From NCBI RefSeq assembly GCF_000739635.1, contig NZ_BATQ01000032.1:1-48311 (forward strand): a DNA stretch of 48,311 bases. The letters are read 5' to 3'. Positions 1-17,405 of this stretch are shown here, one piece after another. A program made the translations under genes and the position numbers. The notes below the pieces were generated by a model. It was not told the origin of the DNA. It ran no database searches and saw only the letters and a program-made list of their open reading frames with translations. This DNA is from Verrucomicrobium sp. BvORR034 (lineage in GTDB: Bacteria > Verrucomicrobiota > Verrucomicrobiia > Verrucomicrobiales > Verrucomicrobiaceae). How positions within the stretch are numbered: the stretch's first letter is position 1; each line of letters starts with the position of its first letter.

Positions 1-2383
1 CGGTGCCCAGAGCCAGGGCGCAGCCGAAGTGGAGCCAGCTGACGAAGGTCTCCCGCTGATGCTGGGTGGGGAAGGTGCGCCGCAGCCACGCGACGAGCGG
101 GCGGTACGTGGAAGGGGGCGTGGAGCCAGGGGTGCTCCCCTGGGGTGGGTCTTCATCCTCATCCATCCACAAGGTGGGGAAGAAGACGCGCCAGAAGTGG
201 AGGTGCAGGGGGGACTTGCCGCCGGTGCGCTGGCCCCTGGAGAGCCTCTCTGCCAGCCAGAACTGGAAGGGGACGAGCAGGAGCAGGGCGGCGATGAAGA
301 GGGCCCAGGAACTGGAGGCGGTAAGCTGGGTCAGGGTGGCGTCATGGGTGGCCCTGTCCTCTCCACAGACGTCCATGTAGAGGGCCTGGAAGGCGAGCAG
401 GAAGGCGGCACTGAGCAGGACGCGGCCAAGGCCCTCCCAGGACTCCAGCAGGAGGGTGTGCTTCCTCACGGTGCCGGAGAAGTAGGTGCTCTGCCCCTGG
501 ATCCAGCCTTTCTGCACGGCTTCCAGGAGAGTGAGCTGGTCTGGCAGCGGCTGTTGGAGAAACCACTGCCGGGTGCGCAGGTAGGGGAAGGTGAAGCTGC
601 TGACGACGCCGCGGATCCAGCCGAGCTCCCCACGCAGACGCTGGATGTAGCGGCTGGCGACGGCGGAGTAGAGGCCGGAGATGGACCAGTAGGCCTGGAC
701 GCGCATGCCTTCGGCAATGATGCGGTAGTCGAACTGGCGGTCTTCCACCTGGGCAGGGGGGACTCTGGTCTGGTCCTCCTTCTCCAGCCCAAACTGAAAG
801 AGGCGGGCGGGATTGTGCCCCCGGTGGAGCAGCCAGGCGACGGCTGAACTGCCGGTGGCGATGGCGAAGGCCAGCCCACGCAGGATGCCTGAGGCGGACT
901 CGCTGAGGGAGAACTTGACCAGATTGGTGGTGGAGAGGACGAACAGAAAAAGGGAGGCGACGGTGATGCCGACTATGAAGAGGTGAAGGTGGTCCGCCCT
1001 CTTGCCCCAGCCGTTGCCGACGTCGGCGGTGAGATCCCGCAGCCGGGCAAAGGTGCCGAAGGGGGAGGTGGTGCAGCTCAAGGCGATCCCCACGGCGCGA
1101 TCGTGGGTGGTGGCGTTCTTGCTGCCGGTGAAGAGCTTCCGCAGGGCCTCCTCCCGCTGCGCGGCGGTGGTGGGTACGGTGGGGAGAAGATGCTGATAGG
1201 CGTGCAGGTTCCTGACCATCGCCTGAAGGAGGCGGTGGCCGTTCTCCTGCCAGCGGGGGTGGTGCTCGGGCAGGTGCGTAGCGGAGGGGAGATCGTCAGG
1301 CTGCGCGTCGTAGGGCTGAAGGAGACGGAGCGGCCGGTGGGGGAGGGTGAGGCCGTTGGCGCCGGTCTTTGCCCGGTCGATGGGGACGTGAAGCACGGGG
1401 CCGGTGTCTGCCCAGGCGATGATGCTGGGGATGGGCAGGAGGCCATCGGTCAGGCCGCGGCGTTTGGCCAGGGTGATGACGGCCGCACCGGGGTTCTGGA
1501 GGGAGGTGAGGTCTGCCGGGGTGGCGGTGTCATGCGTCTCATCGTAGATGGCGAGCAGGACGTCGCTGTAGGCGGCGATGTATTCACCGGCGGCGCGGTA
1601 GCGGATGTTGCGCCGGGTGAACCTGACGGGGGTGGTGGTACCTGCGGTGAGGTCCACGGCGGGATCGCCGGTCGGATTGTAGTCAGGGTCTGCGGAGACG
1701 TCTGGGTGCAGGGGCACGCAGAAGAGATCCCGCTCCGGGCAGAAGCCGTCCTGGCTCTTGATCAGCTCCAGCAGATGCTGGAGGCGGCGCTTGGGGGCGT
1801 CTGCAACGCCCAGGGGATTCTGATCGGGGGTGCAGCGGGAGAAGGAGCTGGCCTCGGCATAGATCTCCTCCGGAAAGGGCAGGGGGGCGCGCACGGTGAT
1901 GCGGGCTTCCGGGTGCCACTTCTTGTAGGCGAAGACGGCTTCCACCACGAGGGTGTCCACCCCCGGTGCCAGGGAGCTGAGCACGACGATGGGGGTGGTG
2001 CCCAGGCCGAGGGGCTGCCAGATGGCGTGGTAGGCCTCTGCGGTGTTCCCCTGGGCGTTCTCAAACTGGAGGAAGCGGCGGGAATGAGGATCCAACCGGC
2101 CGGTGAAGAGCAGCGGGGTGGGGGTGTGGAGCAGCCAGTCCAGCGTGGCAAACACGGCGTCCCGCACGGCCTGGATGGCTGGCAGAGGGGATGGGCCGGG
2201 GTGGGGGCTGCCTGGAGAGTACGTGGGAGGCCAGTGGACGTAGCCCGCGGGATCGTTGTTTCCTGTGACGCCGAGGATGAAAGCGGGAGTCAGAACTGCT
2301 TCATTAACAATGGCATGGGGGAAATTTGATGCCGTCGATTGCCGTGTGCCGGCAGCAACAGCAGTTGCAGTGGGGCTTGACAT
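1..2383 (-). CDS. SLOG-like domain membrane protein (partial, C-terminus off the left edge)
   Basis: The minus strand is open from an ATG at 2383 to position 1 (at least 794 codons), so only the C-terminus is missing. The N-terminus resembles SLOG/LOG-type Rossmann domains: a first strand ending G38-V-T-G41, a GVDTLVVE helix start near residues 138-145, a following VRAPLPFPEEIY segment, and GEYIAAYSDVLLAIYD near residues 265-280. Residues from about 460 on contain hydrophobic helices (about 465-483, 498-518, 652-670, 687-708), with a DYRIIAEGMRVQAYW segment between them. SLOG domains are known as nucleotide-ligand sensors or processors in bacterial conflict systems, often coupled to membrane-spanning effectors. 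That role here is inference. An in-frame ATG at 2410 is an alternative start, and neither has a clear ribosome-binding site. The gene diverges from the cell-wall cluster that begins at 2938. Confidence 0.72.
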   Translation of the reverse strand, partial: MSSPTATAVAAGTRQSTASNFPHAIVNEAVLTPAFILGVTGNNDPAGYVHWPPTYSPGSPHPGPSPLPAIQAVRDAVFATLDWLLHTPTPLLFTGRLDPHSRRFLQFENAQGNTAEAYHAIWQPLGLGTTPIVVLSSLAPGVDTLVVEAVFAYKKWHPEARITVRAPLPFPEEIYAEASSFSRCTPDQNPLGVADAPKRRLQHLLELIKSQDGFCPERDLFCVPLHPDVSADPDYNPTGDPAVDLTAGTTTPVRFTRRNIRYRAAGEYIAAYSDVLLAIYDETHDTATPADLTSLQNPGAAVITLAKRRGLTDGLLPIPSIIAWADTGPVLHVPIDRAKTGANGLTLPHRPLRLLQPYDAQPDDLPSATHLPEHHPRWQENGHRLLQAMVRNLHAYQHLLPTVPTTAAQREEALRKLFTGSKNATTHDRAVGIALSCTTSPFGTFARLRDLTADVGNGWGKRADHLHLFIVGITVASLFLFVLSTTNLVKFSLSESASGILRGLAFAIATGSSAVAWLLHRGHNPARLFQFGLEKEDQTRVPPAQVEDRQFDYRIIAEGMRVQAYWSISGLYSAVASRYIQRLRGELGWIRGVVSSFTFPYLRTRQWFLQQPLPDQLTLLEAVQKGWIQGQSTYFSGTVRKHTLLLESWEGLGRVLLSAAFLLAFQALYMDVCGEDRATHDATLTQLTASSSWALFIAALLLLVPFQFWLAERLSRGQRTGGKSPLHLHFWRVFFPTLWMDEDEDPPQGSTPGSTPPSTYRPLVAWLRRTFPTQHQRETFVSWLHFGCALALGT

Positions 2384-2410
2384 GGAGAGGTGTTTTTCCA
2401 CGCACGACAT

Positions 2411-2937
2411 GTGCCATGCGATCTTTCTTTTAGACTACTACTACGTTGAGTCATTGTATGTCCATCTGGCAATATGCTGTTGGGTGAATATTTTGATATA
2501 TTTGCCGGAGATTGCTCATGCGGTCCCCGTTGGGACGGTTGGGATAGTCCGATGGACGATATCTCATCCCTTGAGTGCTGGCTGTTTCGGAGGGGATCGA
2601 GCATCGTTCATCCCAATACGAAGCGGGATGCCCGCAGAGGGGGCGAAGGCGCTGCCTGCCTCATTCTTAAAGGCTTGCGCGTGCCTGGCCTGTGCACTTT
2701 CAACCATCACTGTGCCTGGGCGGGCCGGTTCACGGGCCGGTGTGGTATCGAACCGAAGCAGTAGTCCGACTTATGCCATGGCGGGTGAAGGCGGAGGGGG
2801 CGGTGACAACAAAGTAGTATGTAAATATGTTGATATGTTGATAAGTCCGCTGGTGAATCGAAGACGGCTTGGTTTGTCAGCAACTTGATGGAGAAATGGA
2901 CTTGACAATGGTCTGGTGTAAAACTTGTTGGAGGGAG
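2411..2937. other. Divergent intergenic region upstream of the cell-wall cluster
   Basis: This 527-base gap separates two divergent genes and should hold both promoters. It is less G+C-rich than its flanks. A TTGACA hexamer lies at 2902-2907, but no good -10 box follows at normal spacing. A short tandem repeat (TATGTTGA twice) lies near 2825-2842. The open frames here have no recognisable product, and I see no gene in it. Confidence 0.5.
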
Positions 2938-5900
2938 ATGAGTGGCATGCTTTCGACCCTCTATTTCGCCCTGCCAGTGGTGGTTGTGGTTGTGCTCTCT
3001 ATTGTCGCGATGGTGTTCAGGATGAGGAGCGGGCTGATAGTGTTGCTGTTGTCCGCGGCGGTGATGGTGACGGGGCTTTGTTTCGCCGGGATGTGGCAAC
3101 GCGCGACGAACGACCATGCGCGCTGGGAGTGGAAGCTGACCGGCTTCCAAACCAGTGTGAGTGCGGTGCCCTGGGATGAAGGGAAGAACAGGAAGGGGGC
3201 GGGAGGCGAGAAGGCGGATCGCTTTGCGTTGCTGCCCTGGAGACTGCTGAACTCCGCATCCGGTGGGCTGGAGATCGGAGTTCAAGGCGGTGATGGAAGA
3301 CTTCTGGCGCGCCGTGCGGTGGTCGATCCTGGTGAAGGGGTGCTGTTTGTGGACTTCTCGAAGGCGGAGGTACCAGGAAATGACGGTGAGGTGCGGTTTC
3401 CGGTGGAAAGAGGAGCGAAGGTGGTCCTGCGGTCCACCGGCGTCATTGATTGTGAACTGACCTATGACGACAACGAATACCGGTGGACGCGGAAGGTTCT
3501 GAACAACAAAGGATTGTCCCAGCTTTTGGACAGCGTGAGCGTGCCGGCTTTTCCCAAGGCGGTGCGATTGGGTGAGGATGCGGTGTTTTGGACCACGCGA
3601 AAGGGCACGCAGGTCTACGTCCTCCGTACGGGTGTGGGCGGTCTGGAGCTGGATGGAACGGTGAAGGAGCCGACTGCGGTATGGACGGCTCCTGAGCAGT
3701 CCTCCTCAATGCTGCGGGTGTGGACGACACGCGAACGCAATGGGGAGACTCGTCTGGTGAGCCTGGCAGAGTTCAGCGTGGGGATCAAAGATGGCGGGTT
3801 GAAGGGGAAGCTGACGGGAGGGGCGGCCTCCAAGCGGGAGCAGACGGTGCGCATCCCGGAGCAGTTCATGATGCAGGGAGGCCTGGAGCACTTTCTGGTG
3901 AGTGGCTGGGTCTATGATCATGAAGGGGAGCGGGTTCCGGAGTCAACGGCCGTGAGGGCTGGGGATGACCTCTGGAGCGGGATCTATGGGGAGGGTCAGG
4001 AGGGGTTGTTGGGGAACAAGGGGCAGGTCCGTATTCTGCCCAATGACCGGCCGAGGATGCAGGTGGCGGTGACGTTTGACGACGGTCCGCACCCCACGAA
4101 CACGCCCAAGGTGCTGGAGGCGCTACGGCGGCATGGGGCGGTGGCGACGTTTTTCATCCTGGACAGCCGGAAGAGTTTTGCCAGCCCGGCAGATTACGCG
4201 AAGATGGTGCGGCGCATCGTGGCAGAGGGGCACGAGCTGGGCAATCACACGCGGACTCACAGCGTCGGCAACTGGACGGATGTGGAGGTGAACGAGTTGC
4301 AACGGATCCTGGTGGAGGATTGCAAGGTGCCGCGGCCCAGCTTGTTTCGTAACCCGGGTGGAGCGATGCCAATGCGACATGGGCATGGGGCAAGGCTTTT
4401 CGACAGACTGGGGCTCCCGGCGATCTTTTGGACGGTGGATTCTGGGGATTCCACCAAGGGGATCGACCAAAGCGTGACGGCGTTGACGGAGCGGGTGCTC
4501 AATGGGACAGACGGGACCTCGGGACGGCTGCAGGATGGCGCGATCATCCTGCTGCATGACATTCAAAATCATACGGTGGCCGCAGTGGATGCCATCCTCA
4601 CGGGGTTGAGAAACCGGAATGTGGAGTTTTTCACCGTGTCTGAGCTGCGGAGGTTGCAGCTCGGGTCGCAGCTGGCAGGGCTGAGGGTGGCGGAGCTGCC
4701 CAGAGCGGGCACAGAGCGTTATGCTTCATACCTGACACTGGGTGGATTGCCTGCGAGATATGAGCATCCTGAGCAGCCATGGCGGTTGATGATGGGGGCT
4801 CCTGAGGGCGGGCGGCGTGTGAGATTGGAAGGCGGGGCGGATTTTGCCATGGACTTGCCGGGGCAGGTGGATCTGACGCCCGCTGGTGAGATGAAGGATG
4901 GAGAGCGGATGCTGCTGGAGGTGGGGCGGTATGGAGCGGATAACAGGGGGGCTGCCACGATATTGGGGGCCGGAATACTGCTGGGCCTGCTGTTGTGGAG
5001 TACTCCTGACCGGGTGTGGCCCCATGGGGGCGTCTTGCTGGCTTTGCTATCCGTTCTGGCGCTGACGCGGGTGCTTCTGGGATGGAGTGCGGACTGGGTG
5101 TTCCCGAGCGATGAGGCGGTGCACGTGCGCTCAAGCTGGGCCATTGGCGTGCCGGTGCTCTTCTGGGTGGTGGTCTGGGCGCGTGGTTTTGTATCCTGGC
5201 TGCTGAAGCCTCTCAACTGGCAGGGGCTGTATCTGCGGGTGAAGCAGGGAGGACCGCATGGGCCGGAGGTTCGGGAGTCGGCGGTGCTCACGGTGGTGAT
5301 GGTGCTGGCGGCGGTGCTCACGTTGGGGGCTGCGGTCATGGGAGGGTGGACGGGGGCCTGGGGGGTGGAGCACGATTGGAAGATCCAGGCTGCGGTGGGC
5401 GTCGCCGGTGGGGGGGTGGGATTCCTGGGGGGCTATTTGCCAGGCAGGCTGTTGAAGTGGATCAAGCAGGAGGCCGTTCTGGGGGCTCTGTTGCTTGTGA
5501 TTCTTGGTCTGGGGCTGCTGGTGTGGAAACTGGGTGATGGATGGGGTGGGCTGGTGAAGACCGGCGGCTGGGCGGCCCTGGGCGGGCTTGCTCTATATTG
5601 CACGAAGGCTGCCTTTGGCGGGGCCCGGGCAGGCGGGGCCTGGGCGGACGGAGCCCGGGCTGGCGGGGTGATCTTCATCACGGGGATTCTGGTGCTGTTG
5701 GTGTTGGGCCCCGGGGTTCTACCGGGCGGGGAACGAATCGCCCTCGGCGTCGGCAACATTCAGAAGTCGGCGATCTATTTCCTCGCCCTGCCTCTGCTGG
5801 CGGGCTGGCTGGTGGCGGGATTTGGCCGGAGGTGGCAGCTGAAGCAGCAGTATGAGGAGCAGTCCTGGATGGTGTGGCGCTGGGTCATCCTTGTCTTCGG

Positions 5901-6939
5901 CGCGGTTGCCGGTCTGCACGCCGCGATATACGGCCTGGTGGTAAAGGATCTCGGTGCGGTGCTGATCCTGGCGCCTGTGGGGTTGGTGCTGCTGAGTTAC
6001 GTCGCGGGACGGGTGCCCGGATGGCTGGCGAGACTGGTGTTCTGGCTGTTGCTGCCGTTGACGGTCGGATGGTTCGGCATGCTGGGGTACAACTGCCTGG
6101 AGCGGGCATTCCGTGAGGATCTGGACGGGGTGGTGGAAAGCGCTGTCAGACTGAACTACTGGATGATTCTGGCCGCTTTGGCGTTGGGCGTGCTGGCCTT
6201 AGCCCCAAGGGTGATTGTCTTGTGGAAGGGGTGGGGCGTGGTGCTGGCGGTTTTGGCCATGGTGTTGATCCCCTATGTCTCCAGCTTGATGGCGGAGGGG
6301 CCGTTGAGATCTGATCACCTGCTGCCGGCGACGGCGTGGGCCGCAGAGAATGGCCGGGGGGCGGAGGAGGCTGATGGTGAGCTGCGGAAAGACGAGCTGG
6401 GGTGGCGCAAAAAATTCCTGCGGCTGCGGTCGCATGACCGGGAGTTCGTGGCGAGCCAGCCGGACGTGAAGGCGGTGGAGATCTTCCAGGAACTGGAGAT
6501 GGTGGAGATCTACGGGAGGTCTGGCTGGGGGGGAGATGGGTTGTTGAGCGTGCCGATCCGGCAGGGGGCGCGGGCGAATCTGCTGTGTGATTACGCGCCA
6601 TCTGTGTTTTTGAAGTCGCAGCTGGGCATCCAGGGCACGCTGGCGGTGGTGGCGCTGTACGCGATGTTTCCGCTGGTGGCCTGTTTGTACTGGCGTCCTG
6701 AGGGGGGAAGCTCGGTGTTGGTGGTGATGTCTGAGGTGGCGGGCAAGGCTGCCGCGTGGGCGATGGGACTGCTCTCGCTCTACATGATTGCCAGCAACTT
6801 CGGTCTCCTGCCCCTGACGGGCAAGAACATGATCATGCTGGGATTGAACAGCTATTCTGACCTGCTGGAGGCGGGTGGGCTGGCCGTGCTGATGGGATGG
6901 TGGGGCCAGGGACTGAACTCAAATGGGGGTGACTCATGA
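2938..6939 (+). CDS. Polysaccharide deacetylase (NodB) fused to a SEDS (FtsW/RodA-like) membrane domain
   Basis: This 1,333-residue protein has three parts. Residues 1-55 form two hydrophobic helices, followed by an unassigned beta-rich region to about 370. A NodB deacetylase domain follows: TFDDG with the Asp pair at 381-382, HELGNHTRTH with zinc-ligand histidines 437 and 441, RNPGG, and ILLHD. The D-H-H metal triad is intact. From about residue 680 it has at least ten hydrophobic segments, including KDLGAVLIL and, near the C-terminus, NFGLLPLTGKNMIMLGLNSY, which parallels the last conserved SEDS loop. SEDS proteins polymerise glycan strands with a class B PBP, and exactly such a PBP starts at the next gene with a 4-base overlap. 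NodB enzymes de-N-acetylate peptidoglycan or other glycans. The start was set at ATG 2938 just behind GGAGGGAG; ATG 2947 has better spacing. Deacetylase identity is strong. SEDS assignment is good but divergent. Confidence 0.85.
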   Translation: MSGMLSTLYFALPVVVVVVLSIVAMVFRMRSGLIVLLLSAAVMVTGLCFAGMWQRATNDHARWEWKLTGFQTSVSAVPWDEGKNRKGAGGEKADRFALLPWRLLNSASGGLEIGVQGGDGRLLARRAVVDPGEGVLFVDFSKAEVPGNDGEVRFPVERGAKVVLRSTGVIDCELTYDDNEYRWTRKVLNNKGLSQLLDSVSVPAFPKAVRLGEDAVFWTTRKGTQVYVLRTGVGGLELDGTVKEPTAVWTAPEQSSSMLRVWTTRERNGETRLVSLAEFSVGIKDGGLKGKLTGGAASKREQTVRIPEQFMMQGGLEHFLVSGWVYDHEGERVPESTAVRAGDDLWSGIYGEGQEGLLGNKGQVRILPNDRPRMQVAVTFDDGPHPTNTPKVLEALRRHGAVATFFILDSRKSFASPADYAKMVRRIVAEGHELGNHTRTHSVGNWTDVEVNELQRILVEDCKVPRPSLFRNPGGAMPMRHGHGARLFDRLGLPAIFWTVDSGDSTKGIDQSVTALTERVLNGTDGTSGRLQDGAIILLHDIQNHTVAAVDAILTGLRNRNVEFFTVSELRRLQLGSQLAGLRVAELPRAGTERYASYLTLGGLPARYEHPEQPWRLMMGAPEGGRRVRLEGGADFAMDLPGQVDLTPAGEMKDGERMLLEVGRYGADNRGAATILGAGILLGLLLWSTPDRVWPHGGVLLALLSVLALTRVLLGWSADWVFPSDEAVHVRSSWAIGVPVLFWVVVWARGFVSWLLKPLNWQGLYLRVKQGGPHGPEVRESAVLTVVMVLAAVLTLGAAVMGGWTGAWGVEHDWKIQAAVGVAGGGVGFLGGYLPGRLLKWIKQEAVLGALLLVILGLGLLVWKLGDGWGGLVKTGGWAALGGLALYCTKAAFGGARAGGAWADGARAGGVIFITGILVLLVLGPGVLPGGERIALGVGNIQKSAIYFLALPLLAGWLVAGFGRRWQLKQQYEEQSWMVWRWVILVFGAVAGLHAAIYGLVVKDLGAVLILAPVGLVLLSYVAGRVPGWLARLVFWLLLPLTVGWFGMLGYNCLERAFREDLDGVVESAVRLNYWMILAALALGVLALAPRVIVLWKGWGVVLAVLAMVLIPYVSSLMAEGPLRSDHLLPATAWAAENGRGAEEADGELRKDELGWRKKFLRLRSHDREFVASQPDVKAVEIFQELEMVEIYGRSGWGGDGLLSVPIRQGARANLLCDYAPSVFLKSQLGIQGTLAVVALYAMFPLVACLYWRPEGGSSVLVVMSEVAGKAAAWAMGLLSLYMIASNFGLLPLTGKNMIMLGLNSYSDLLEAGGLAVLMGWWGQGLNSNGGDS

Positions 6940-9863
6940 GGTGGACGAGGAAACTACGCGAGGTGGTCAGGCCGGTCAGGAGAGGGCTGGAGGCCTGGGC
7001 GCGAAGCTCGACGTCCTTCCGGCTGGATGGGGTGCGTGGCGATGGCTGGATCACCCGGACGGTGACGATCTGCCTGGCCCTGACGGGAGCGCTGGCGGTG
7101 GGCTGGGTGGTTTACAAGGCGGACAACCTGGAAAGACCGACCCATATCGATCACGACTTCTATGCCCAGACGGTGGAGCAGATGCTGAAGGACGGAGTTT
7201 TGACGTCCGACCTGAAACCGTGGTTGGAGATCAGCAAGAAGGCGCAGCAGGAAATCGCTGCGGGCTTTCCCGGCTTCTCCGAATGGCTCACCCGGCAGAA
7301 GCCCGAGATGCTGCGCAAACCCAAGGATTACCAGCGTCTGAGCTATCTGATGGAAGAGCATGAGGACAGCTTGGTGGAGGCTGTGGAAAGGTTGCGCAGC
7401 AGCAGCCGGTTGAGCGGTTTTGTGCGGCACAGTCCGCTGCTGCAGGAGCTGGAGAAAATGCACCGCAGCTATCTGACCTGGCATGTCGCCCGGAGTACTG
7501 CCGGGATCGGGGTCAAAAGAGCTGCGGCAGAGGCGACGGATGCGGTGGAAGGGGATGAGGCGGATGGATGGCGTGAGGGTGTGCTGAAGAGTCAAACCAC
7601 GTTTGAACTGAATGGTTCGCGCTATGTGGCCAGGCGGGGAGTGCACCGGCAGGAGACTGCGTACCACCAGAAGTTTTCCTGGAGAGGGGAGCTGATGTTC
7701 CTGGACCAGTTCAAGCGCCTGGAGGAGCAGCGCCGCCAGGGCAAGGATCCGGTGCTGACGCTGGGCTCGCAGGTCCGGATCGGGTACGTGGGGAAGCACG
7801 AGTCTTTCTGCCAGACGGTGATGCCGCAGAGCAGCAAGCCTGCTGTGGTGACGGCGCTGAACCGCAGTCTTGAGGATGGGCGGTTCGATCTTCAGGCGCG
7901 TACAGCCGTGCCGGTCATCATGTTGCGGGAGAATGGCAGGGATGTGTGCCACCTCTACGTCCTGAAGACGGGCTCGGGTCAGGAGCTGCGCCTGATCAAT
8001 CTGGCGAATACTAATAACGTGCGTCTCGATCCGGGAACGGATTGGGAGAGGATTGCAGGAACCAACCCCTTGGAGTACCGGTTGAGGGAGGGCCCGAGGG
8101 GGACGATTCACTACCGGCAGGGGGGGCGTAACTCAGACCGGGAGAGGTTGATGGTCACGCTGTTGGACGCCGGGCAGGCCGCGGCCACCCCCTATGTGGC
8201 GCCAGGCGGCCGTCGCGAGGAGGATGATCTGATCGGGTTCTTCCACTACCACAACGGTGGGCCGCAGCGGAGGGGGCGTGGGGTGGAGGACAGGATGCCT
8301 GGAGCGGAGTATGTGGCCAAGCTGGATGAGGCGATCGACTCTGCCATGGGCTCGATCGCGGAGGAGCACAGCCTCCGGGACAAGTCCTACATGTGCACGC
8401 TGGACCGTACATTGCAGGTGCAGATGCAGACGTCGGTGACTCGGCGGCAGGGAGAGCATCGGGGGACGGTGGAGCGGGAGTACGGGGTGACGATCATGAA
8501 CGAGCATGGTGAGCTGCTGGCTCTGGGATCTGCCGTGCGCGGGATGAAAGCGGGGCTGAATCCCAAGAGTGACCGGGCCATGAATGTAAATTTCCGGCAT
8601 CATCCGGTGGGCAGTGCGGCGAAGCCGATGTTTGCCGCGGCTGCGGCAGCCGTGGCACCAAGCTTGCTGAATCTGGAGATCGATGGAAAGGGAGCCGAGG
8701 ACTTGGGAAATAACAGTCGCTCGACGAGTGACGACCGCCTTCGCCTCTCCGCAGTGGGGCGGCAGGTGCGGTGGCTCAAGCCGTTCCACGACTGGACCTA
8801 TGGCACGGCGGACCAGACGGCACTGGCCTTTGCCAAGTCCTCGAACCTCTGGTTCATCAACCAGGCGCTGCTGGCGGTGGCGCTGACGGGAGACAAGGGG
8901 CAGCAGATGACGGCGTGGCAGTTGCGCCCCGGCGGAGGGCAGGGCTTCCGCCTGAACGGAGAGCCCTTTGGGCCGGTGGAAGTGCCGTTGATGGAGGGCA
9001 GGGATGAGGTGGCCAAGTTCCCCAAGGGCATCTCAGACACTGGCTTTGCCACGCATCTGGCGGCGCTCTTTGGCACGCCTCTGGCTCCGCCGGCGGAGGG
9101 GGATTTCAGTGTCTATGATGCGGAGAGGACTTATGCGGAGCTTTGCAGGGAGCTTCCCGCCGCAGTGCAATGGTTGGGGCGGCACCGGTGTGCCCCTCAG
9201 TACAGCCAGCAGTACCTGGTGTCATCGGACATCGATCTTCGGAACGACTTTGTCAGCATGATCGTGGGCGGGGGCAGATTGGGGGAGTGGACGAATGTGG
9301 CGCTGGCGCAGAACTTTGCCCGGTTGGTGACGGGACGGCAGGTGCAGGCCACCTTGTTGCGGGCCCGGCCGGAGGCGGGAAGTCCGCTCCAGATGCCGGC
9401 ACGGGCCGCCCCGCTGGCCCTGCCGGAGCTGACGGTGGCAAGGATGCGCGACCTGTTGCGCAAGCCCATCACGGGAACGGAGTCGGTTGCGGGCACGGCG
9501 TCCGTGGTGGGAACGGCGATGCAGAAGTACCCGAACCTTGAGGCGTTTGGCAAGACGGGCACCTATCTGCTGCGAGACTACGACACGGGGCACTACCGGA
9601 TGTTTGTGTGTTACCTGAAACCCAAGGCGGGGGCCTGGGATGGCCCGGGGCTGTCTCTGGTGGTCTCCGTCAATGGCGATGAGACGGTGAGCCACGGCGA
9701 TGGCGAGGCGCTGGAACTCTTCGTCAAAGATGTGCTGCCGGTCGCGGCCACCTGGCTGGGATACTATGTGCAGATGCAGACGGCCGGCGCGGTGCCGCCT
9801 GCGGCGGGAACGGCGGAATCAGACGGGGCGAAACGGACGGGCAAGGAGAAACAAGGAAGATAG
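6936..9863 (+). CDS. Class B penicillin-binding protein-like transpeptidase
   Basis: The protein has 975 residues. A single TM helix lies near residues 30-50, followed by a long extracytoplasmic part. The penicillin-binding transpeptidase signature is complete: SxxK as S560-A-A-K, SxN as S635-S-N637, and K873-T-G. The N-terminal half shows no glycosyltransferase motifs that I recognise, so class B is the best fit. It would cross-link stem peptides in the periplasm, probably with the SEDS domain encoded just upstream. The start ATG overlaps the upstream stop (ATGA), which suggests translational coupling and a 1:1 complex. It is longer than usual class B PBPs (about 550-700 residues), and the extra length is in an unassigned region before the SxxK box. 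Confidence 0.9.
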   Translation: MRWTRKLREVVRPVRRGLEAWARSSTSFRLDGVRGDGWITRTVTICLALTGALAVGWVVYKADNLERPTHIDHDFYAQTVEQMLKDGVLTSDLKPWLEISKKAQQEIAAGFPGFSEWLTRQKPEMLRKPKDYQRLSYLMEEHEDSLVEAVERLRSSSRLSGFVRHSPLLQELEKMHRSYLTWHVARSTAGIGVKRAAAEATDAVEGDEADGWREGVLKSQTTFELNGSRYVARRGVHRQETAYHQKFSWRGELMFLDQFKRLEEQRRQGKDPVLTLGSQVRIGYVGKHESFCQTVMPQSSKPAVVTALNRSLEDGRFDLQARTAVPVIMLRENGRDVCHLYVLKTGSGQELRLINLANTNNVRLDPGTDWERIAGTNPLEYRLREGPRGTIHYRQGGRNSDRERLMVTLLDAGQAAATPYVAPGGRREEDDLIGFFHYHNGGPQRRGRGVEDRMPGAEYVAKLDEAIDSAMGSIAEEHSLRDKSYMCTLDRTLQVQMQTSVTRRQGEHRGTVEREYGVTIMNEHGELLALGSAVRGMKAGLNPKSDRAMNVNFRHHPVGSAAKPMFAAAAAAVAPSLLNLEIDGKGAEDLGNNSRSTSDDRLRLSAVGRQVRWLKPFHDWTYGTADQTALAFAKSSNLWFINQALLAVALTGDKGQQMTAWQLRPGGGQGFRLNGEPFGPVEVPLMEGRDEVAKFPKGISDTGFATHLAALFGTPLAPPAEGDFSVYDAERTYAELCRELPAAVQWLGRHRCAPQYSQQYLVSSDIDLRNDFVSMIVGGGRLGEWTNVALAQNFARLVTGRQVQATLLRARPEAGSPLQMPARAAPLALPELTVARMRDLLRKPITGTESVAGTASVVGTAMQKYPNLEAFGKTGTYLLRDYDTGHYRMFVCYLKPKAGAWDGPGLSLVVSVNGDETVSHGDGEALELFVKDVLPVAATWLGYYVQMQTAGAVPPAAGTAESDGAKRTGKEKQGR

Positions 9864-9889: not shown

Positions 9890-12580
9890 ATGAGCAAGAT
9901 CAAGGAGCTGCTGGAAAAGATGGGCCTTACAAACGATGAGGCAGGGGGTGGGGCGGGAGCCCGATACCCTCTGTCCGGAGGCGCGTCACATCTCGATCCG
10001 GCGAAGTGGTCGGCAAACTTTGAGGAAAGTTCCAGGAAGATCGAGGAGGTCCTGACCGGCTGGGATATCCTGCCGAACGGACATGACAACGACAGCAACC
10101 CTGAAGTTTACTCGTTTGGCGAGGCTTTCGCCGCGCTTTCAAAAAAGATCCAACCTCCGGGCTTCTTGATGAAACAGTTTGGGCGTGGGAAAGCGAACCG
10201 CGCCAAACCCACCACGAAGGACCTGGCAAAGGCCTTCGCCGAAGGTGTGGCAGCCCAGCCCAAGGTGGATCTGATGCTGCAGCGCATGCTGGAGTCTGAC
10301 ATGGAGCAGTATGACGTTTTCATCGTCATCCCGGTGGGGGCGGTTTTGACCCGGGACGCCAAGGACTTCTGGGTCAGCAACCAGGTGGGGCCTGCGTGCA
10401 AGGAGTTCACGAACGTGACGAGAGAAGCGATCCTGGAGAAGGCGGACCGTCTGGCCATCTCGATGGCCCGCAAACCTGGCAACTTGAAAGCCCTGCTGTC
10501 GGTGAAGATCCACGTCGAGGTGTGTTTCATAGATGCCTCGGGTGATCTGAAGAAGTCGGAGTATGTGCTGGTCACGAAGCGCCGCAGCGGTCCAGATGCG
10601 GTCATCTTCCGGTTAAAGGTAAGTACGGAAGCGCGCAGTGAACCCATCCTGTTTGCTGAGACCAGGGGGGTGATCGACCGGGCCTCAGATGCCAATGCCA
10701 GTCGCAAGCCGATCCGGCGGGCCGTCTATCCTGAGAACTACCAGTTCTACCTTTGCCACTATCCCGCCCGGCAGGTGAAGCTCAGCATCACGGATATCGC
10801 CGTGCCAGAGAGGGACGGCAGCAAAAACAACGGCGGCTGGCGCCCCCCAACGAAGTCGAAAAAGTTGTCCGTTTTTGAGATCCAGCATATTCCTGGACTG
10901 GGGCTGACGACCAACCAGCTGGCGGAGGAGATCCGGAGATTTACAGGGAGGAAACTCGAAGTGAACGCGACGGCCAACGATGTGCGCCGCATCTATCAGG
11001 ACTGGATGAGCCAGGCTGATGCGGGCATCAAGGGCAACATCGCCTGGCTGGGAGCCGCTACTTATGATGATGCAAAAGGGTGGCAGATGGATGCACCCAA
11101 GGTGTCGGGTCAGCGCGAGTTCAACCGGCTGCGCATTGACAGCCTGAACTATTTTCCAGAGTTCGACACCGATGCTTTCCAGGATCAAGAAGGGGTGGAC
11201 GTGCATCTGGAGGCTCTGCCTTCTCTGGTGGAGGCGGTAAAGGCGTCTGATCACGGACCCGACTTGTGGCGTGCGGCGACTCCTCCAGCCAAGGCTGGCC
11301 ATGCTGCCGCCAAAGGCCTGTTCCGAATTGCGTTCGATACGAAGAAGGATCACTACATCCTGGAAACTTATGAGGGGGTCGCAGCGGACCTTCAGTTCAA
11401 GGTGGCAACGCGCATGGAGCTCAACCCCGCGGGTACGGATGACCCGTTGCAGTTGAAGGAGAAGCTGCTGGGGTTTGTCTCTGGGGAATTGCTGCGAGGA
11501 GATCAGAAAGACATCAAGCAAGGGATTCCGCTGGGCAACGGGGTCTTTTACCTCGCGGTCGGCTTTCCAGCCGTAGGGTATCTGTTGTTTGTGATCAGCA
11601 CCGGGTCACGCACCACCTCCTCTGAGGCGTCCAGGGAGAACTCGCTTCCCGTGGAGTTGCAGCAGGCGCACCTGGTGAGCTTCTGTGAGAAGAAGGGGAT
11701 TACCGGTCTGCGGAAGGCGTTTGCCGACCGGATCACGACCCAGGGGGAAATCTTTGTCGCAGAACCAAGCGATGCCCCGGGGCAGACACACTTCGTCAAA
11801 GTCTTCTGGGGGAATGACCTCAACGGCCGGAAAAAGGCCCTCCGTAACATCTGGCCGGTGCTGCAGGACAAGGGCCTGCTGCCGCCCGACATCAAGTGCC
11901 TGGCGATGAACGCGGAGTTCAGGGAGGTCTATCCAGAAGACAATAGCTCTGTCGTCTGGCTGGTGGTGTCGCCGAAATTCAAGACCCTGGAGGAGCGCCT
12001 GGAGGAACCGCTCACGGTGGTGGAGCGACTGGAGCTGGTGAATCAGCTGCGGCAATTCTACCGCCGGGCGCTGGCGGCCGGGCTGGCCTTTCCGGATTGT
12101 ACTGCGGAAGACCTGGTGTTGTTTCCTGATGAATCCGGTCTGACGCTGATCGACTTCGGCTCCTACCTGCCGCAGGGGCAGTGGGATGACGACCCCCTGC
12201 CCCGCAAGGACGACTACCGGGACCCGGCTTTCGAGGCCTGGAAGAAGTGGCGAAGCAAAGACCTGCCACCATCGAGGGAGCTGCTGCTCAAACAGCATGC
12301 CTACAATCTGGGCCTTCTGCAGGCAAGGGTGCTTACTGGAGAGCTCTGCGATGTGGCGGACACCCCCCTGCAGACGGACTCGCAAATGAGGAAGGTGCAG
12401 GCGGACTACGAAACACGTCTGGCTGCCATCTCAGGAAAAATCGCAGAAACTTGGGCCGCGGACACGGAGGCGAGTGTGTGGCCTGCGCAGTTGATGCTGG
12501 TTCAAGGGGACACGGAGGCATTGCTGTCCTGGGATGTGCCTGGGCGCCCGTCTCCATTGGACTTGGAGGATATTGAGTGA
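9890..12580 (+). CDS. Protein kinase-like (possibly atypical or pseudokinase) protein
   Basis: The protein has 896 residues, begins 26 bases after the PBP gene, and has no TM segment or signal peptide. Its C-terminal third looks like a divergent protein kinase fold. A FVKVFWG strand could supply the ATP-binding lysine. AFPDCTAEDLVLF stands where HRDLKPEN normally lies: the catalytic Asp is kept at 736, the following Lys is replaced by Thr and the Asn by Asp. LTLIDFGSY supplies the DFG motif, with its Asp at 755. Residues 1-470 are unassigned. The altered catalytic loop means activity cannot be assumed. The adjacent PP2C-type phosphatase gene supports a kinase/phosphatase pair acting on the cluster's membrane proteins, as with PknB and PstP in Actinobacteria, but that functional link is inferred. 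Confidence 0.62.
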   Translation: MSKIKELLEKMGLTNDEAGGGAGARYPLSGGASHLDPAKWSANFEESSRKIEEVLTGWDILPNGHDNDSNPEVYSFGEAFAALSKKIQPPGFLMKQFGRGKANRAKPTTKDLAKAFAEGVAAQPKVDLMLQRMLESDMEQYDVFIVIPVGAVLTRDAKDFWVSNQVGPACKEFTNVTREAILEKADRLAISMARKPGNLKALLSVKIHVEVCFIDASGDLKKSEYVLVTKRRSGPDAVIFRLKVSTEARSEPILFAETRGVIDRASDANASRKPIRRAVYPENYQFYLCHYPARQVKLSITDIAVPERDGSKNNGGWRPPTKSKKLSVFEIQHIPGLGLTTNQLAEEIRRFTGRKLEVNATANDVRRIYQDWMSQADAGIKGNIAWLGAATYDDAKGWQMDAPKVSGQREFNRLRIDSLNYFPEFDTDAFQDQEGVDVHLEALPSLVEAVKASDHGPDLWRAATPPAKAGHAAAKGLFRIAFDTKKDHYILETYEGVAADLQFKVATRMELNPAGTDDPLQLKEKLLGFVSGELLRGDQKDIKQGIPLGNGVFYLAVGFPAVGYLLFVISTGSRTTSSEASRENSLPVELQQAHLVSFCEKKGITGLRKAFADRITTQGEIFVAEPSDAPGQTHFVKVFWGNDLNGRKKALRNIWPVLQDKGLLPPDIKCLAMNAEFREVYPEDNSSVVWLVVSPKFKTLEERLEEPLTVVERLELVNQLRQFYRRALAAGLAFPDCTAEDLVLFPDESGLTLIDFGSYLPQGQWDDDPLPRKDDYRDPAFEAWKKWRSKDLPPSRELLLKQHAYNLGLLQARVLTGELCDVADTPLQTDSQMRKVQADYETRLAAISGKIAETWAADTEASVWPAQLMLVQGDTEALLSWDVPGRPSPLDLEDIE

Positions 12581-12605
12581 AGAGTCTACAGGACTGAGGA
12601 GAACC

Positions 12606-14393
12606 ATGAATCAACCTGAACTTTACGGATTTACCTGCTTTGAGCCGGGGTACTTTTTTGACAAGGCTGTCGCCGGGGGGAGGGATGATGCAGTTCTATG
12701 GGTCGATGAAAGAACTGGGAGGTTGGTTGGCTATGTGACCGATGCTCCTGAAGACGTTCCCACGGCGATTCTGGGCGTGATAAGAAACGCGTTTGTGACG
12801 GCGGCCCAGCGACTGATCCAGGGGCCTGGTGGAGGGGCCAAGGTTGCGGCGGACCTGATGACCTCCGTCAATCGCGATGTGGCCGCCTATGCCGGTGATC
12901 GTGGTGCCCGGGATAAGATGGTGGCATGTCTCACCTGTGTGTACCGGGACTATGACGGCCTCTATGTCGCCTGCCTGGGGGACACCTCAGCAGTGCTTCT
13001 TTATCAGGACGGGAGTGCGGCGCGCGTGACGGTCACTGAACTGAATGACAGGCATGGTGACCGGTTTATCGAAAGAAAGAATGAGCTTGTTGAATCTTAC
13101 TGGGGGCGGCGGGTTGGGAGTCTGGAGATTGCCTATCCAGAGCAGGCGGTTTCCCGGTTTGCTGCCAATGCGAGAGCGATCTGCCTCTTCACGGACGGGA
13201 TCGAGAAGCACTATCCGGACTTTGAACGCCTGCTGGTGCAGGTGAATGGTTTTGCCCAGCTGAACCAGGGGCTTTCCAGCAGCGGACGCATCCCAACCGA
13301 TGCTCCGGACAAGCTTGAGGATGACATCTGCGTGTTATATCATGAACTGCCGCCTCTCAACAAGGAGGCAGGTCTGTTGGTCATCGCCCAGGGGCCTGGC
13401 GGGGCGAGAACGGGGAGGAAAGATGAGGCGATGGGGGATGCCTCCCAAAAACAGCCTGCTCCGGCCTCGCCACAACTCTCAAAAGAGACGGTTGAGGAGC
13501 TGAGAAAGAGCTTGCTCCAGGAAGGCCAGAGCCGGGGAAAGGTACTGGAGGGAAGGATCAAGGGGGTTGAAGAAAAGCTGCAACAACTCAGGCAGGATTC
13601 AGTAACCCACCTTGATAGAGTCTTTGATGAGTTGACGAAACTACAGATGCAACGGGCGGATTCGGCGCATGCAGGACGGATTGAACGACCGAGGCAAACC
13701 TCTGCCAGGAAAGGGAAATGGGTTCCGAATTGGCTGGCCCGAATGATCGGGTCGCCGAAGCTCGATAACTTGCAGGACTACATTGAGTCTTCTCCGGCTA
13801 GTCACCAAGAGCCTCCGTCAGGAGTGGATGCCGAGCGGCTGTTGAACCTGGAAGCCTCTGTCGAGACCCTCAGGGAGGGCCAGAAGCAGATCGTAGATGC
13901 TCTGGAAAAATTGCCGCAAAAGCAGAAGAGCGCCGTGGGGCCTGGCACCTTCGTCGCGATGGCACTGGGGGGAGTTCTGCTTTTCTATGGTCCGTTGATA
14001 TTGGTTTACTCTGACATGACCTCGAAGTCGGAGGAAGCTGCGGAAAAACAAAGTCGCCTGGAAAGGGAGATTTTGGCTGTCAGACAGAATCTGCAGGGTG
14101 CCAGAGAGGGCAAGCAGCCGGACAAAACGGGAGCGACCGACAAAGGGGCCGCGTCTGGATCGTCGGAGCCCGATGATGCGGGCATCTCAGGCCCGCCTGA
14201 TGTCACCAAAGCGGCGGCTGGTGCCGCGGATAAAAAGGAACCAAAGGCTGGAACGCCGGGGGGGCAACCTACTCTGGCGATGCCAAACCAGAAGTGGGAA
14301 GGCCTCTGCCAGTGGCGGAAGTGCCCAGAGCTGAAATGGACGCGCTTAACAAGAAACGGGAGGAGCTCAGAACTGAACTCGGAAAGGAAATGA
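12606..14393 (+). CDS. PP2C-type protein phosphatase with TM anchor and coiled coils (C-terminus probably frameshifted)
   Basis: The start ATG 12606 follows a good GAGGAG site. Residues 1-255 match a PP2C/PPM phosphatase in outline: GGRDDAVLWV at the N-terminus, the CLTCVYRDYDGLYVACLGD strands, LFTDGIEKHY (SDG-like metal site), and DDICVLYHE (terminal DD metal site). A coiled-coil region follows, then one TM helix (AMALGGVLLFYGPLILVY, near residues 455-475) and another coiled coil. After a G7 run at 14258-14264 the frame turns into a low-complexity tail, while the coiled coil continues in another frame to 14581. The intact product is therefore probably about 658 residues. It likely opposes the upstream kinase-like protein. 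Confidence 0.75.
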   Translation: MNQPELYGFTCFEPGYFFDKAVAGGRDDAVLWVDERTGRLVGYVTDAPEDVPTAILGVIRNAFVTAAQRLIQGPGGGAKVAADLMTSVNRDVAAYAGDRGARDKMVACLTCVYRDYDGLYVACLGDTSAVLLYQDGSAARVTVTELNDRHGDRFIERKNELVESYWGRRVGSLEIAYPEQAVSRFAANARAICLFTDGIEKHYPDFERLLVQVNGFAQLNQGLSSSGRIPTDAPDKLEDDICVLYHELPPLNKEAGLLVIAQGPGGARTGRKDEAMGDASQKQPAPASPQLSKETVEELRKSLLQEGQSRGKVLEGRIKGVEEKLQQLRQDSVTHLDRVFDELTKLQMQRADSAHAGRIERPRQTSARKGKWVPNWLARMIGSPKLDNLQDYIESSPASHQEPPSGVDAERLLNLEASVETLREGQKQIVDALEKLPQKQKSAVGPGTFVAMALGGVLLFYGPLILVYSDMTSKSEEAAEKQSRLEREILAVRQNLQGAREGKQPDKTGATDKGAASGSSEPDDAGISGPPDVTKAAAGAADKKEPKAGTPGGQPTLAMPNQKWEGLCQWRKCPELKWTRLTRNGRSSELNSERK

Positions 14394-14659: not shown

Positions 14660-15433
14660 ATGAGGCAGATACTGCTTTGGCTTTCTTTCTCTTCACTCCT
14701 GGTGATGGGCTACTATTCAGTCTGGCCGGTGATCCGATATGGAGATCTGTCCAGGCATACGGTGCCATTCGGATGGGATTTTGCGACGCTCGCAGCCTGT
14801 CACGTGGTGGTGGTGTTTTTGTTGGCCCTGGTGGCGAGCTTCGGCCAGGGCAAATGGCGCGTGGCCCCACAGGCGGGGGCTGAGCTGGTGAAGCTGACTG
14901 GCTACCTCTATACCCTGGCCGGCATGGTGGTGCTGCTGTACGGGAATGCCGGAGGGAGCGCGCAGGCGGCATCCAACGAGTCATCGCAGCAAATTTTGAA
15001 GCGAATGCTGCCCATGCTGGGCAGTGGGCTGTTTAGCAGCCTGCTGGGCTGGTTTCTGGCGGGGTTTCTGGATGTGTGGGCGCTCAACCGCCTGCTTCTC
15101 CAGCCAAAGACGCCTGGTCCAGCCGTGGTGGCAAACCTGCCGGAGCCCAGCGCCAATGCTATTGTCGAAGGAGTGTCGGTGACCATGCTGGAGGCGATCC
15201 GGGAGAACATGGGACACTTTCACCAGACGGTGCAGCAGGCGGCGGACACGGTGACCCTGGCTTCTGTGGGTGTTGACAACGCGAACCTCTTCGTGGGCAA
15301 GGCGGCGGAACTGATGGCCGGTGTGCAGACGCTGTTGCTGACGGACGTTGCCCGCAGGGAGCAGTTGGAGGGTGAGCTGGCCGCCATCAAGGTGAACCTG
15401 GAAATCCTGACCGCGGAACTGCGGGACAGATGA
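14660..15433 (+). CDS. Four-TM MotA/TolQ/ZorA-like membrane protein
   Basis: The protein has 257 residues with TM helices at about 4-23, 40-62, 76-94 and 116-138, then a 120-residue helical, probably cytoplasmic tail. TM3 (LTGYLYTLAGMVVLL) and TM4 (MLGSGLFSSLLGWFLAG) resemble the paired GT-rich pore helices of MotA/ExbB/TolQ/ZorA stators. The short loops and long C-terminal tail are closer to ZorA than to MotA, which has its large cytoplasmic loop between TM2 and TM3. The next gene encodes a one-TM OmpA-like protein, the usual partner. Stator pairs couple ion flow to rotation or force at the envelope. The family assignment rests on pattern only. Confidence 0.5.
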   Translation: MRQILLWLSFSSLLVMGYYSVWPVIRYGDLSRHTVPFGWDFATLAACHVVVVFLLALVASFGQGKWRVAPQAGAELVKLTGYLYTLAGMVVLLYGNAGGSAQAASNESSQQILKRMLPMLGSGLFSSLLGWFLAGFLDVWALNRLLLQPKTPGPAVVANLPEPSANAIVEGVSVTMLEAIRENMGHFHQTVQQAADTVTLASVGVDNANLFVGKAAELMAGVQTLLLTDVARREQLEGELAAIKVNLEILTAELRDR

Positions 15434-15475
15434 TGTGTGACGGCCACCCAGGGCCTCTCTTCCCCTAGCCATACC

Positions 15476-16297
15476 ATGACGCATCGAGGAATCACTCCGC
15501 AGCAAGAACTGTTCATGGCCATCCTGCTGATTGGTATTGCGATGGCCGTGATCAGCAAGAACCCGGAACCGGAGCCTCCTCCTCCTCCTCCGCCTCCTCC
15601 TCCGCCTCCTCCTCCTCCAGTACCCGACCTGGTGGTTGAACCTGTGGCTCCGCCGGAGAAACTCCCGCAGATACGGCCCATCTCGGGTGAGGGGGCGTTT
15701 TTCGGGGAGCTGTCCTTTGATATTCCGGCTGACTCAGATCTGGCGCAGCGGCTGCTGGGCGTGGCGCGGGAGATTGAGGAGAAGGGGCGGGCTGGTGGGT
15801 TTGACGGGGTGGAGGTGGTGGGCCATGCGGACACGACGCCGTTGAACTTTTCGACCTTCGATTCCAAGGCTGATCTGGATACGTTGATGGCTGGCTGGCT
15901 GCGGGGGGATGAGACGGTGTCATTGCAACCTGAGCAGGGCAGTCCGCTGATCTTCGTGCCAGTGCCCTCCGCAACCGATTGGGCCAGAAGAAAAATGATC
16001 CCCAGCAACGTGGATCTGGCGATGCTGCGTGCTCTGGCGGTGGTGAAGTTTTTGCAGAAGAACCGCGGAGGCTCAGACTGGCCTTCGCTGGACTTCATCA
16101 GGGTGTTCCTGCCCTTGTCGGCAGGGGCTTTCATCTCCCCTGATTCCAGGCTGGATCAGGGGCTGATGAAGCAGGAGAAGGAGGTTGCCCGCAAACGCCG
16201 GCGCATTGAGTTCCATCTGTTCAAAACAGCGGACCGTCTTTCAGGACAGGCGGAGGAGCTCTTTCCTCCTCCGCCGGTGGCTCTGCCGGTTGAGTGA
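15476..16297 (+). CDS. OmpA/MotB-like protein with single TM helix and polyproline linker
   Basis: From ATG 15476 the protein has 273 residues: a short cytoplasmic start, one TM helix (ELFMAILLIGIAMAVI, residues about 11-26), a run of 15 prolines, and a C-terminal domain with OmpA-like peptidoglycan-binding features. These are VEVVGHADTTPL in place of the usual GHTD strand, NVDLAMLRALAVVKFL in place of the NxxLSxxRAxxV helix, and RKRRRIEFHLF in place of NRRIEI. MotB/ZorB-type stators carry an acidic residue at the start of the TM, and the Glu of QQELF could play that role. A GTG at 15437, 3 bases after the upstream stop, is an alternative start that adds 13 residues. The partner is probably the four-TM protein upstream. 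Confidence 0.68.
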   Translation: MTHRGITPQQELFMAILLIGIAMAVISKNPEPEPPPPPPPPPPPPPPPVPDLVVEPVAPPEKLPQIRPISGEGAFFGELSFDIPADSDLAQRLLGVAREIEEKGRAGGFDGVEVVGHADTTPLNFSTFDSKADLDTLMAGWLRGDETVSLQPEQGSPLIFVPVPSATDWARRKMIPSNVDLAMLRALAVVKFLQKNRGGSDWPSLDFIRVFLPLSAGAFISPDSRLDQGLMKQEKEVARKRRRIEFHLFKTADRLSGQAEELFPPPPVALPVE

Positions 16298-16379: not shown

Positions 16380-17405
16380 CTAGGGGAGACGGGGTACAGT
16401 GTTTCGGCTGAACCAGGATTTCAGGCGTTCGACTTCGTCCTGCCACTTTCTTTGCTCAGGAGAGGGAGGCATCTGGGCAACGAAGTCCAGCAAGACGTAA
16501 GCGGCCCAGGGGCTGGGGGCAACTTGCTGCTTTTCCAGACTGCCTCCGTAATCGGGAGCATTCCAGAGGCGGTGGAAGGCATCCCGATCTTCAAGGGTGA
16601 CAGGACGGTGGGCTGTGTCGGGAGGCGGTGGCGACGATCGCTTGGGGCGGCCTGTGGGGGCCTTTTGTTTGTTGATGATTTTCTCGCCGAGTTCCTGCCA
16701 GCACCGCAGCTCCAGGCTATAGGCGGAGATGGAGTCGAGGTTCTCCTTCTCCACCCAGGCCCAGCGCTGTTGAATGAGGGGGACCCAGGCTGCGGCATTG
16801 AGGTGTGTCTTGAGGCTGGAGCTCAGTTTCTCGATGTTGCCCAGGATGAAGCACGCCCGGACGAGGCGGGCCTGGTAGTGGTCAATAGAGGTGGGGCACC
16901 TCATTCGAAGCACGGCGTGAACGACCTCTATGTCGATGCCATGCTTGACCGCGCCTGCGCAGGCCATTTCCTCGAACTGAACCCCCTGGCGCCATCTGGC
17001 GAGCCGGTGGGGCCGGGCCCTGTTCATCTCATCGTAGGTGAAGCCTTCTCTCTTGCTCCACTCCGCCACGGCGGCGGCAGGGCCGTGGAGGCGGGCGGAC
17101 TCCAGGACGTCGGCAGGTGCCAGGCTGCAGCCCACGCGGTCGAGCAGGAAACGGACGTAGCCATCACAAACCTCTTCAAGGTCGGCAAACCGGGATGGGG
17201 TGGAGGTGGAAGGAAGGAGCGGGGAATAGGGGTGTGACAGGGCCTGGTGGCGGTAGATGGTCAGGCGCCGTGAGTCATACTGCTGCCTGAGGGCTTGTAT
17301 CTGGCGCGGAATGACGGTGCCAATACGCCTGCCCTGGCGGAGCCACGGCCGAACTTGGTGCCTCATGCGTGAGACCCACCTGCGCCACGGATTGAAGAAG
17401 CCCAT
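16380..17405 (-). CDS. Hypothetical protein
   Basis: The protein has 341 residues and no signal peptide or TM helix. The N-terminus is strongly basic (many Arg/Trp in the first 50 residues). The middle is helical, and a short proline-rich linker lies near residue 265. I recognise no family. It is convergent with the preceding cluster (82-base gap) and divergent from the next gene, so it is probably transcribed alone. Coding likelihood is supported by length, an even amino-acid composition and a clean ATG at 17405, whereas the opposite-strand frame reads like a shadow. Confidence 0.65.
   Translation of the reverse strand: MGFFNPWRRWVSRMRHQVRPWLRQGRRIGTVIPRQIQALRQQYDSRRLTIYRHQALSHPYSPLLPSTSTPSRFADLEEVCDGYVRFLLDRVGCSLAPADVLESARLHGPAAAVAEWSKREGFTYDEMNRARPHRLARWRQGVQFEEMACAGAVKHGIDIEVVHAVLRMRCPTSIDHYQARLVRACFILGNIEKLSSSLKTHLNAAAWVPLIQQRWAWVEKENLDSISAYSLELRCWQELGEKIINKQKAPTGRPKRSSPPPPDTAHRPVTLEDRDAFHRLWNAPDYGGSLEKQQVAPSPWAAYVLLDFVAQMPPSPEQRKWQDEVERLKSWFSRNTVPRLP

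What the first reader, a model, noticed from the sequence alone, without database searches (positions are those of the whole stretch)
2938..6939. Fusion of a NodB deacetylase to a SEDS-like polymerase domain
An intact D-H-H NodB domain is followed in one chain by about ten TM helices with SEDS-like loops. Coupling glycan polymerisation to immediate deacetylation in one polypeptide would make modified (lysozyme-resistant) peptidoglycan during synthesis.
Basis: partly seen in the sequence, partly recalled or inferred. Interest (0 to 1): 0.65.

Follow-up and report, generated by a model that had tools for sequence, protein, structure and literature searches.

The report
Cell-wall polymerase fused to a deacetylase
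A verrucomicrobial bacterium encodes one membrane protein that joins a sugar-deacetylating enzyme to a distant cousin of the FtsW/RodA cell-wall polymerases, beside a matching cross-linking enzyme, which suggests a machine that may modify wall strands as it makes them.

Summary
Confirmed in outline. The ORF at 2938-6939 encodes two TM helices, an outer region with an intact NodB domain (Pfam 9.5e-19), then a long membrane half. No profile calls the window's own membrane half SEDS, but its family profile matches canonical SEDS (hhalign 2.4e-5; reversed 0.56, MurJ 0.38, Wzy 0.018), and HMMER matches run both ways. The essential SEDS Asp is invariant in 9 of 9 aligned members. Hydropathy and charge place NodB and the SEDS active-site loop on the same side. 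The next gene encodes a class-B-PBP-like transpeptidase with SxxK/SxN/KTGT; a homologue lies within 4 kb of the SEDS-like gene in 10 of 10 loci and is fused in an eleventh. The fusion recurs in two other MAGs in a shared 7-gene cluster; seven relatives show no NodB. Weak points: secure alignment covers only the C-terminal third, several SEDS motifs are changed, and both AlphaFold models were unusable. Deacetylation during synthesis is inferred. Filed as a new variant: divergent SEDS-bPBP pair with in-chain deacetylase.

The parts
2938..6939 (+). NodB-SEDS-like fusion gene, 1333 aa from ATG 2938 (2947 possible)
   Evidence: open frame, start region, homologues in G076 and G170
2959..3087 (+). 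two N-terminal TM helices, RMR between them
   Evidence: Kyte-Doolittle
4048..4647 (+). NodB/CE4 domain with D-H-H and R, D, H motifs
4933..6936 (+). membrane half, divergent SEDS-like
5947..5949 (+). D1004 of the DLG motif, invariant in 9 of 9
6406..6822 (+). stretch aligned to canonical SEDS (large outer loop to PLTG)
   Evidence: hhalign 2.4e-5 over 123 columns
6589..6591 (+). D1218, aligned to the essential SEDS Asp
6936..9863 (+). class-B-PBP-like transpeptidase; SAAK at 8613-8624, SSN at 8838-8846, KTGT at 9552-9563
9890..12580 (+). kinase-like protein (motifs degenerate by eye)
   Evidence: homologues in G076/G170; no Pfam hit; G076 homologue weak PADLOC hit to PD-T4-6, 0.0039
12534..14393 (+). 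PP2C-like protein
   Evidence: PF13672 9.8e-5, below cut-off; homologues
14660..15433 (+). small membrane protein of unknown family
   Evidence: no Pfam hit; homologues
15437..16297 (+). OmpA-like protein
   Evidence: PF00691 0.12 here, 0.0039 in G076, both below cut-off; homologues
16380..17405 (-). unknown protein, probable homologue of the seventh cluster gene
   Evidence: 7e-4 to G170 only, no match to G076 at 1e-3

Best explanation
A divergent SEDS-type glycan polymerase carrying an outer-face NodB deacetylase on the same chain, paired with the class-B-PBP-like transpeptidase encoded next to it. Most likely the SEDS half polymerises lipid II at the outer membrane face, NodB removes acetyl groups from the emerging glycan (GlcNAc or MurNAc unresolved), and the PBP cross-links it, perhaps under control of the kinase-like/PP2C-like genes. 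Shown by sequence: the fusion, NodB motifs, SEDS kinship of the C-terminal third with its Asp, PBP motifs, linkage, recurrence. Inferred: topology, polymerase activity, peptidoglycan as product, order of events, regulation.
For: NodB intact. Family profile to canonical SEDS: hhalign local 1.1e-4, 2.4e-5 for the C-terminal part. HMMER both ways among 1644 frames: canonical profile finds relative L047 (3.2e-5); family profile finds two canonical SEDS (4e-4, 1e-3) and, apart from family and G467, nothing else up to E=1. PF01098 is the best Pfam hit among 9 members (1 of 9, 4e-4). Asp invariant 9 of 9. Topology. PBP homologue in 10 of 10 loci, fused in G467; PBP profile hits MrdA 7kis 1.9e-6; homologues pass Pfam Transpeptidase at 4.7e-14 and 6.7e-7.
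Against: The window's own half hits no SEDS model. hhalign probabilities are moderate, 55-75%. Canonical SEDS against Wzy also scores 7.2e-4 locally and 3.2e-6 globally, so kinship to the wider SEDS/Wzy group is not far from this level. The EE pair, SYGGS and QPSE of canonical SEDS are lost or changed. Seven of ten relatives show no NodB. AlphaFold models unusable.
Confidence: 0.55

Rival explanations
1. The SEDS-like half is not catalytic; it is a scaffold or activator that places NodB and the PBP where another polymerase works.
For: Several canonical motifs are lost; three canonical SEDS genes exist in the genome.
Against: The essential Asp, DLG Asp and loop glycines are invariant in 9 of 9.
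Confidence: 0.2
2. It is a Wzy/WaaL-type polymerase or ligase, and NodB modifies a surface polysaccharide rather than peptidoglycan.
For: SEDS and Wzy are distantly related (PMC8765783 passage; canonical SEDS vs Wzy).
Against: Family vs Wzy 0.018 local and 0.0058 global for the C-terminal part, weaker than vs SEDS; no Wzy Pfam hit; a transpeptidase partner in 10 of 10 loci.
Confidence: 0.1
3. NodB acts on mature wall or another glycan; the fusion only co-localises it and does not couple the reactions.
For: NodB substrate is unresolved; seven relatives do without NodB.
Against: Same chain and same predicted side as the active-site loop.
Confidence: 0.13
4. Chance or assembly artefact joins two genes.
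For: The other two carriers are MAGs.
Against: Same architecture in three genomes, no internal stop, shared cluster.
Confidence: 0.02

Closest known systems
SEDS glycosyltransferases RodA/FtsW (PF01098) with class B PBPs (RodA-PBP2, FtsW-FtsI)
   Same: C-terminal third aligns with the essential Asp in register; SEDS-like helix plan by hydropathy; PBP partner gene.
   Different: NodB and a large outer region in front; extra helices; EE, SYGGS, QPSE lost or changed; below Pfam detection for the window protein.
CE4 peptidoglycan deacetylases PgdA/PdaC (2c1g, 6h8l)
   Same: Domain similarity 2e-20 and 9e-20 and all metal and catalytic motifs.
   Different: Here joined to a polymerase-like membrane half; no subfamily model reaches its cut-off.
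Actinobacterial pknB-type operon (SEDS, PBP, kinases, PP2C; recalled, not looked up)
   Same: SEDS-like, PBP, kinase-like and PP2C-like genes together.
   Different: Kinase-like motifs degenerate by eye; adds NodB, an OmpA-like protein and two unknowns.

Membership tests
SEDS (PF01098) | Sequence homology to the family | tested here: inconclusive
   Met at family level (hhalign 2.4e-5, HMMER both ways; PF01098 1 of 9 members); not met for the window protein alone
SEDS (PF01098) | Essential Asp in the large outer loop | tested here: met
   D1218, invariant 9 of 9, aligned to the HTDF Asp; equated with RodA D262 (passage) partly from recall
SEDS (PF01098) | Other conserved motifs (QPSE, EE after the Asp, SYGGS) | tested here: not met
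   Alignments; DLG kept
SEDS (PF01098) | Ten-helix SEDS fold | tested here: inconclusive
   Hydropathy fits ten plus extra helices; models pLDDT 42.2 and 37.0
SEDS (PF01098) | Lipid II polymerase activity | not testable with these tools
   bench assay
CE4/NodB (PF01522) | Domain homology and D-H-H, R, D, H motifs | tested here: met
Class B PBP (next gene) | SxxK, SxN, KTGT | tested here: met
   invariant in 6 of 6 aligned; 6 of the 11 homologues were aligned
Class B PBP (next gene) | Transpeptidase domain homology | tested here: met
   profile to 7kis 1.9e-6; L047 and L049 homologues pass Pfam; window protein alone no Pfam hit
Wzy/WaaL (PF04932) | Homology to Wzy_C | tested here: not met
   no Pfam hit in 9 members; hhalign 0.018 local, 0.0058 global at best

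The most novel reading that the evidence does not exclude
An undescribed branch of SEDS-bPBP machines in Verrucomicrobiota in which polymerase and deacetylase are one protein, so that the glycan is deacetylated as it is extruded, building a chemically distinct wall zone under phospho-control by a dedicated 7-gene system.
Probability: 0.35. Interest if true: 0.72.

Novelty: new variant of a known kind. Interest (0 to 1): 0.52.

Why it matters
Peptidoglycan deacetylation is usually pictured as a modification by separate enzymes (general knowledge). A polymerase-like protein with the deacetylase in the same chain would make coupled synthesis and modification testable with one protein. The wider family also shows SEDS-like diversity that Pfam and NCBIfam models largely miss, so SEDS-bPBP systems may be undercounted in this phylum.

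Tried and rejected
Structure: AlphaFold on the window's membrane half (9 sequences, pLDDT 42.2) and on the full G076 fusion (8 sequences, pLDDT 37.0). Too poor, so no fold search was run. The global hhalign score (4.6e-7) is not used as support because its N-terminal register is wrong. The single-protein scan of genome contigs confirmed no relative. PADLOC: no hit at 0.1 for the seven window genes; three G076 genes were also given and two had weak hits (PD-T4-6 0.0039; PDC-S65 0.013 and ZorB 0.074). NodB tree: the three fused domains group only weakly (69/74, midpoint root, long branches), so a single fusion event is not proven. Class and phylum scans with the family profile added only G467 and one canonical SEDS protein; at most 3 candidates per genome were scored there, so absence elsewhere is weak. 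Papers: searches showed no NodB-SEDS fusion in the listings and abstract starts seen (capped lists; PMC open licences only); passages only were read of PMC8765783, PMC10449877 and PMC8406291.

Full report
The frame. The window is a whole contig (C169) of an 8.58 Mb assembly in 200 contigs. The nine named relatives found in genome contigs are all titled as verrucomicrobial MAGs. The stop overlaps the next ATG by 4 nt.

NodB. Pfam PF01522 matches at 9.5e-19. Six NCBIfam NodB/PdaB/PgdA/PdaA models match between 2.6e-24 and 1.9e-15, all below their cut-offs, so subfamily and substrate stay open. The nearest solved structure is PgdA 2c1g, 2e-20. Motifs TFDDGP, NHTRTHS, RNPGG, VDS and LLHD carry D381, D382, H437, H441, R471, D501 and H540.

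Family of the membrane half. A search of 386 genomes of the order (drawn from a larger group) gave 10 with a match, the window's included. The window, G076 and G170 carry NodB in the same chain. In the other seven, a NodB search of all frames listed no domain of 150 residues or more at 1e-5; the frames of G019 and G047 (L051, L052) are cut by contig ends, so NodB cannot be excluded there. Four of the seven were scanned with Pfam and had no hit. Three genomes of the own genus (G001-G003) had no match. In the family of G076, 3 of 74 matched. In the class 2 of 384 matched, the window and G467; in the phylum 2 of 387, the window and G908.

Is it SEDS? Pfam and NCBIfam do not call the window's half. 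Among nine members PF01098 matched one, at 4e-4, and was the best Pfam hit. Among 1644 frames a profile of 12 canonical SEDS proteins found the relative L047 at 3.2e-5 (its shorter copy L038 at 2.1e-5), weakly G467 (0.037 and 0.13 for two overlapping copies), L048 (0.45) and L041 (0.78), but not the window protein up to E=1. The family profile found, outside the family and G467, only L096 (4e-4) and an own-genome FtsW/RodA protein in L002 (1e-3). L096 is the G908 hit and scores 6e-85 with the canonical profile. hhalign gave 1.1e-4 for the whole half and 2.4e-5 over 123 columns for the C-terminal part, probability 55-75%. Controls for that part, local/global: reversed SEDS 0.56/0.12, MurJ 0.38/0.069, Wzy 0.018/0.0058. 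For the whole half: reversed 0.36/0.34, MurJ 0.67/0.039, Wzy 0.037/0.5. Canonical SEDS against Wzy gave 7.2e-4/3.2e-6, so the wider SEDS/Wzy relation is visible and global scores do not separate them; the family's global alignment is out of register in its N-terminal part. A search of solved structures with the membrane alignment found no SEDS structure (best 0.9, unrelated).

Catalytic positions. The supported alignment puts D1218 on the HTDF Asp of canonical SEDS. I equate that residue with RodA D262, whose change to Ala abolishes activity (PMC10449877, passage), and FtsW D297, the putative catalytic residue (PMC8765783, passage); the equation rests partly on recall. It is invariant in 9 of 9, as are D1004 and the G of the DLG motif. 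Changed or lost: the EE pair after the Asp and SYGGS; QPSE is at best faintly recognisable, by eye.

Topology. In the G076 homologue hydropathy finds 15 helices, two before the large region and 13 after. With the N-terminus outside, most Lys/Arg-rich short loops fall inside, and NodB, the DLG loop, the 92-residue loop with the Asp and the PLTG segment fall outside. L091 (no NodB) shows two helices, a large region, then ten; I suspect one more in a 44-residue gap, which would fit ten SEDS helices plus one linker. This is inference, not structure.

Partner gene. The next gene has no Pfam hit alone, but SxxK, SxN and KTGT are invariant in six aligned homologues, the profile hits MrdA 7kis at 1.9e-6, and homologues in L047 and L049 pass Pfam Transpeptidase (4.7e-14; 6.7e-7). 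A homologue lies downstream in 10 of 10 order loci: directly in seven (two cut by contig ends), after one other frame in G032 and G047, and 3.7 kb away in G050. In G467 SEDS-like and PBP-like parts share one 1894-residue frame.

Cluster. Seven genes of the window have homologues in order in G076 and G170 for the first six; the seventh matches G170 only (7e-4) and lies on the other strand in the window. Labels beyond the PBP are weak: PP2C 9.8e-5 and below cut-off, OmpA 0.0039 in G076 and below cut-off, kinase-like by eye. Three canonical SEDS genes exist elsewhere in the genome, so this one is additional.

Verdict. Kinship is supported: divergent SEDS half, intact deacetylase, same predicted side, transpeptidase partner. 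Deacetylation during synthesis is the simplest reading but untested; lysozyme resistance is speculation.

Noticed in passing
L084 (G467:C168) 1653-7334, minus strand: One 1894-residue frame joins a SEDS-like membrane part to a PBP-like part with SxxK, SxN and KTGT by eye: a natural SEDS-bPBP single chain.
   Followed up: partly
L046 14812-18192 (+); L052 827-3775 and 6473-8788 (-): NodB-less SEDS-PBP pairs sit beside a caspase-domain protein (L046) and beside a kinase-FGE protein and a CHAT protein (L052), hinting at a signalling or conflict context.
   Followed up: no
window 33182-43372 (+): 3396-residue RHS-repeat-like protein with a Hint/intein-like stretch near its C-terminus, by eye.
   Followed up: no
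window 26724-32546 (+): 1940-residue protein with RCC1-like and fibronectin-like repeats, by eye.
   Followed up: no
L002, L003 (G000:C151:56525-59011): Two canonical SEDS genes lie in tandem in the own genome.
   Followed up: no
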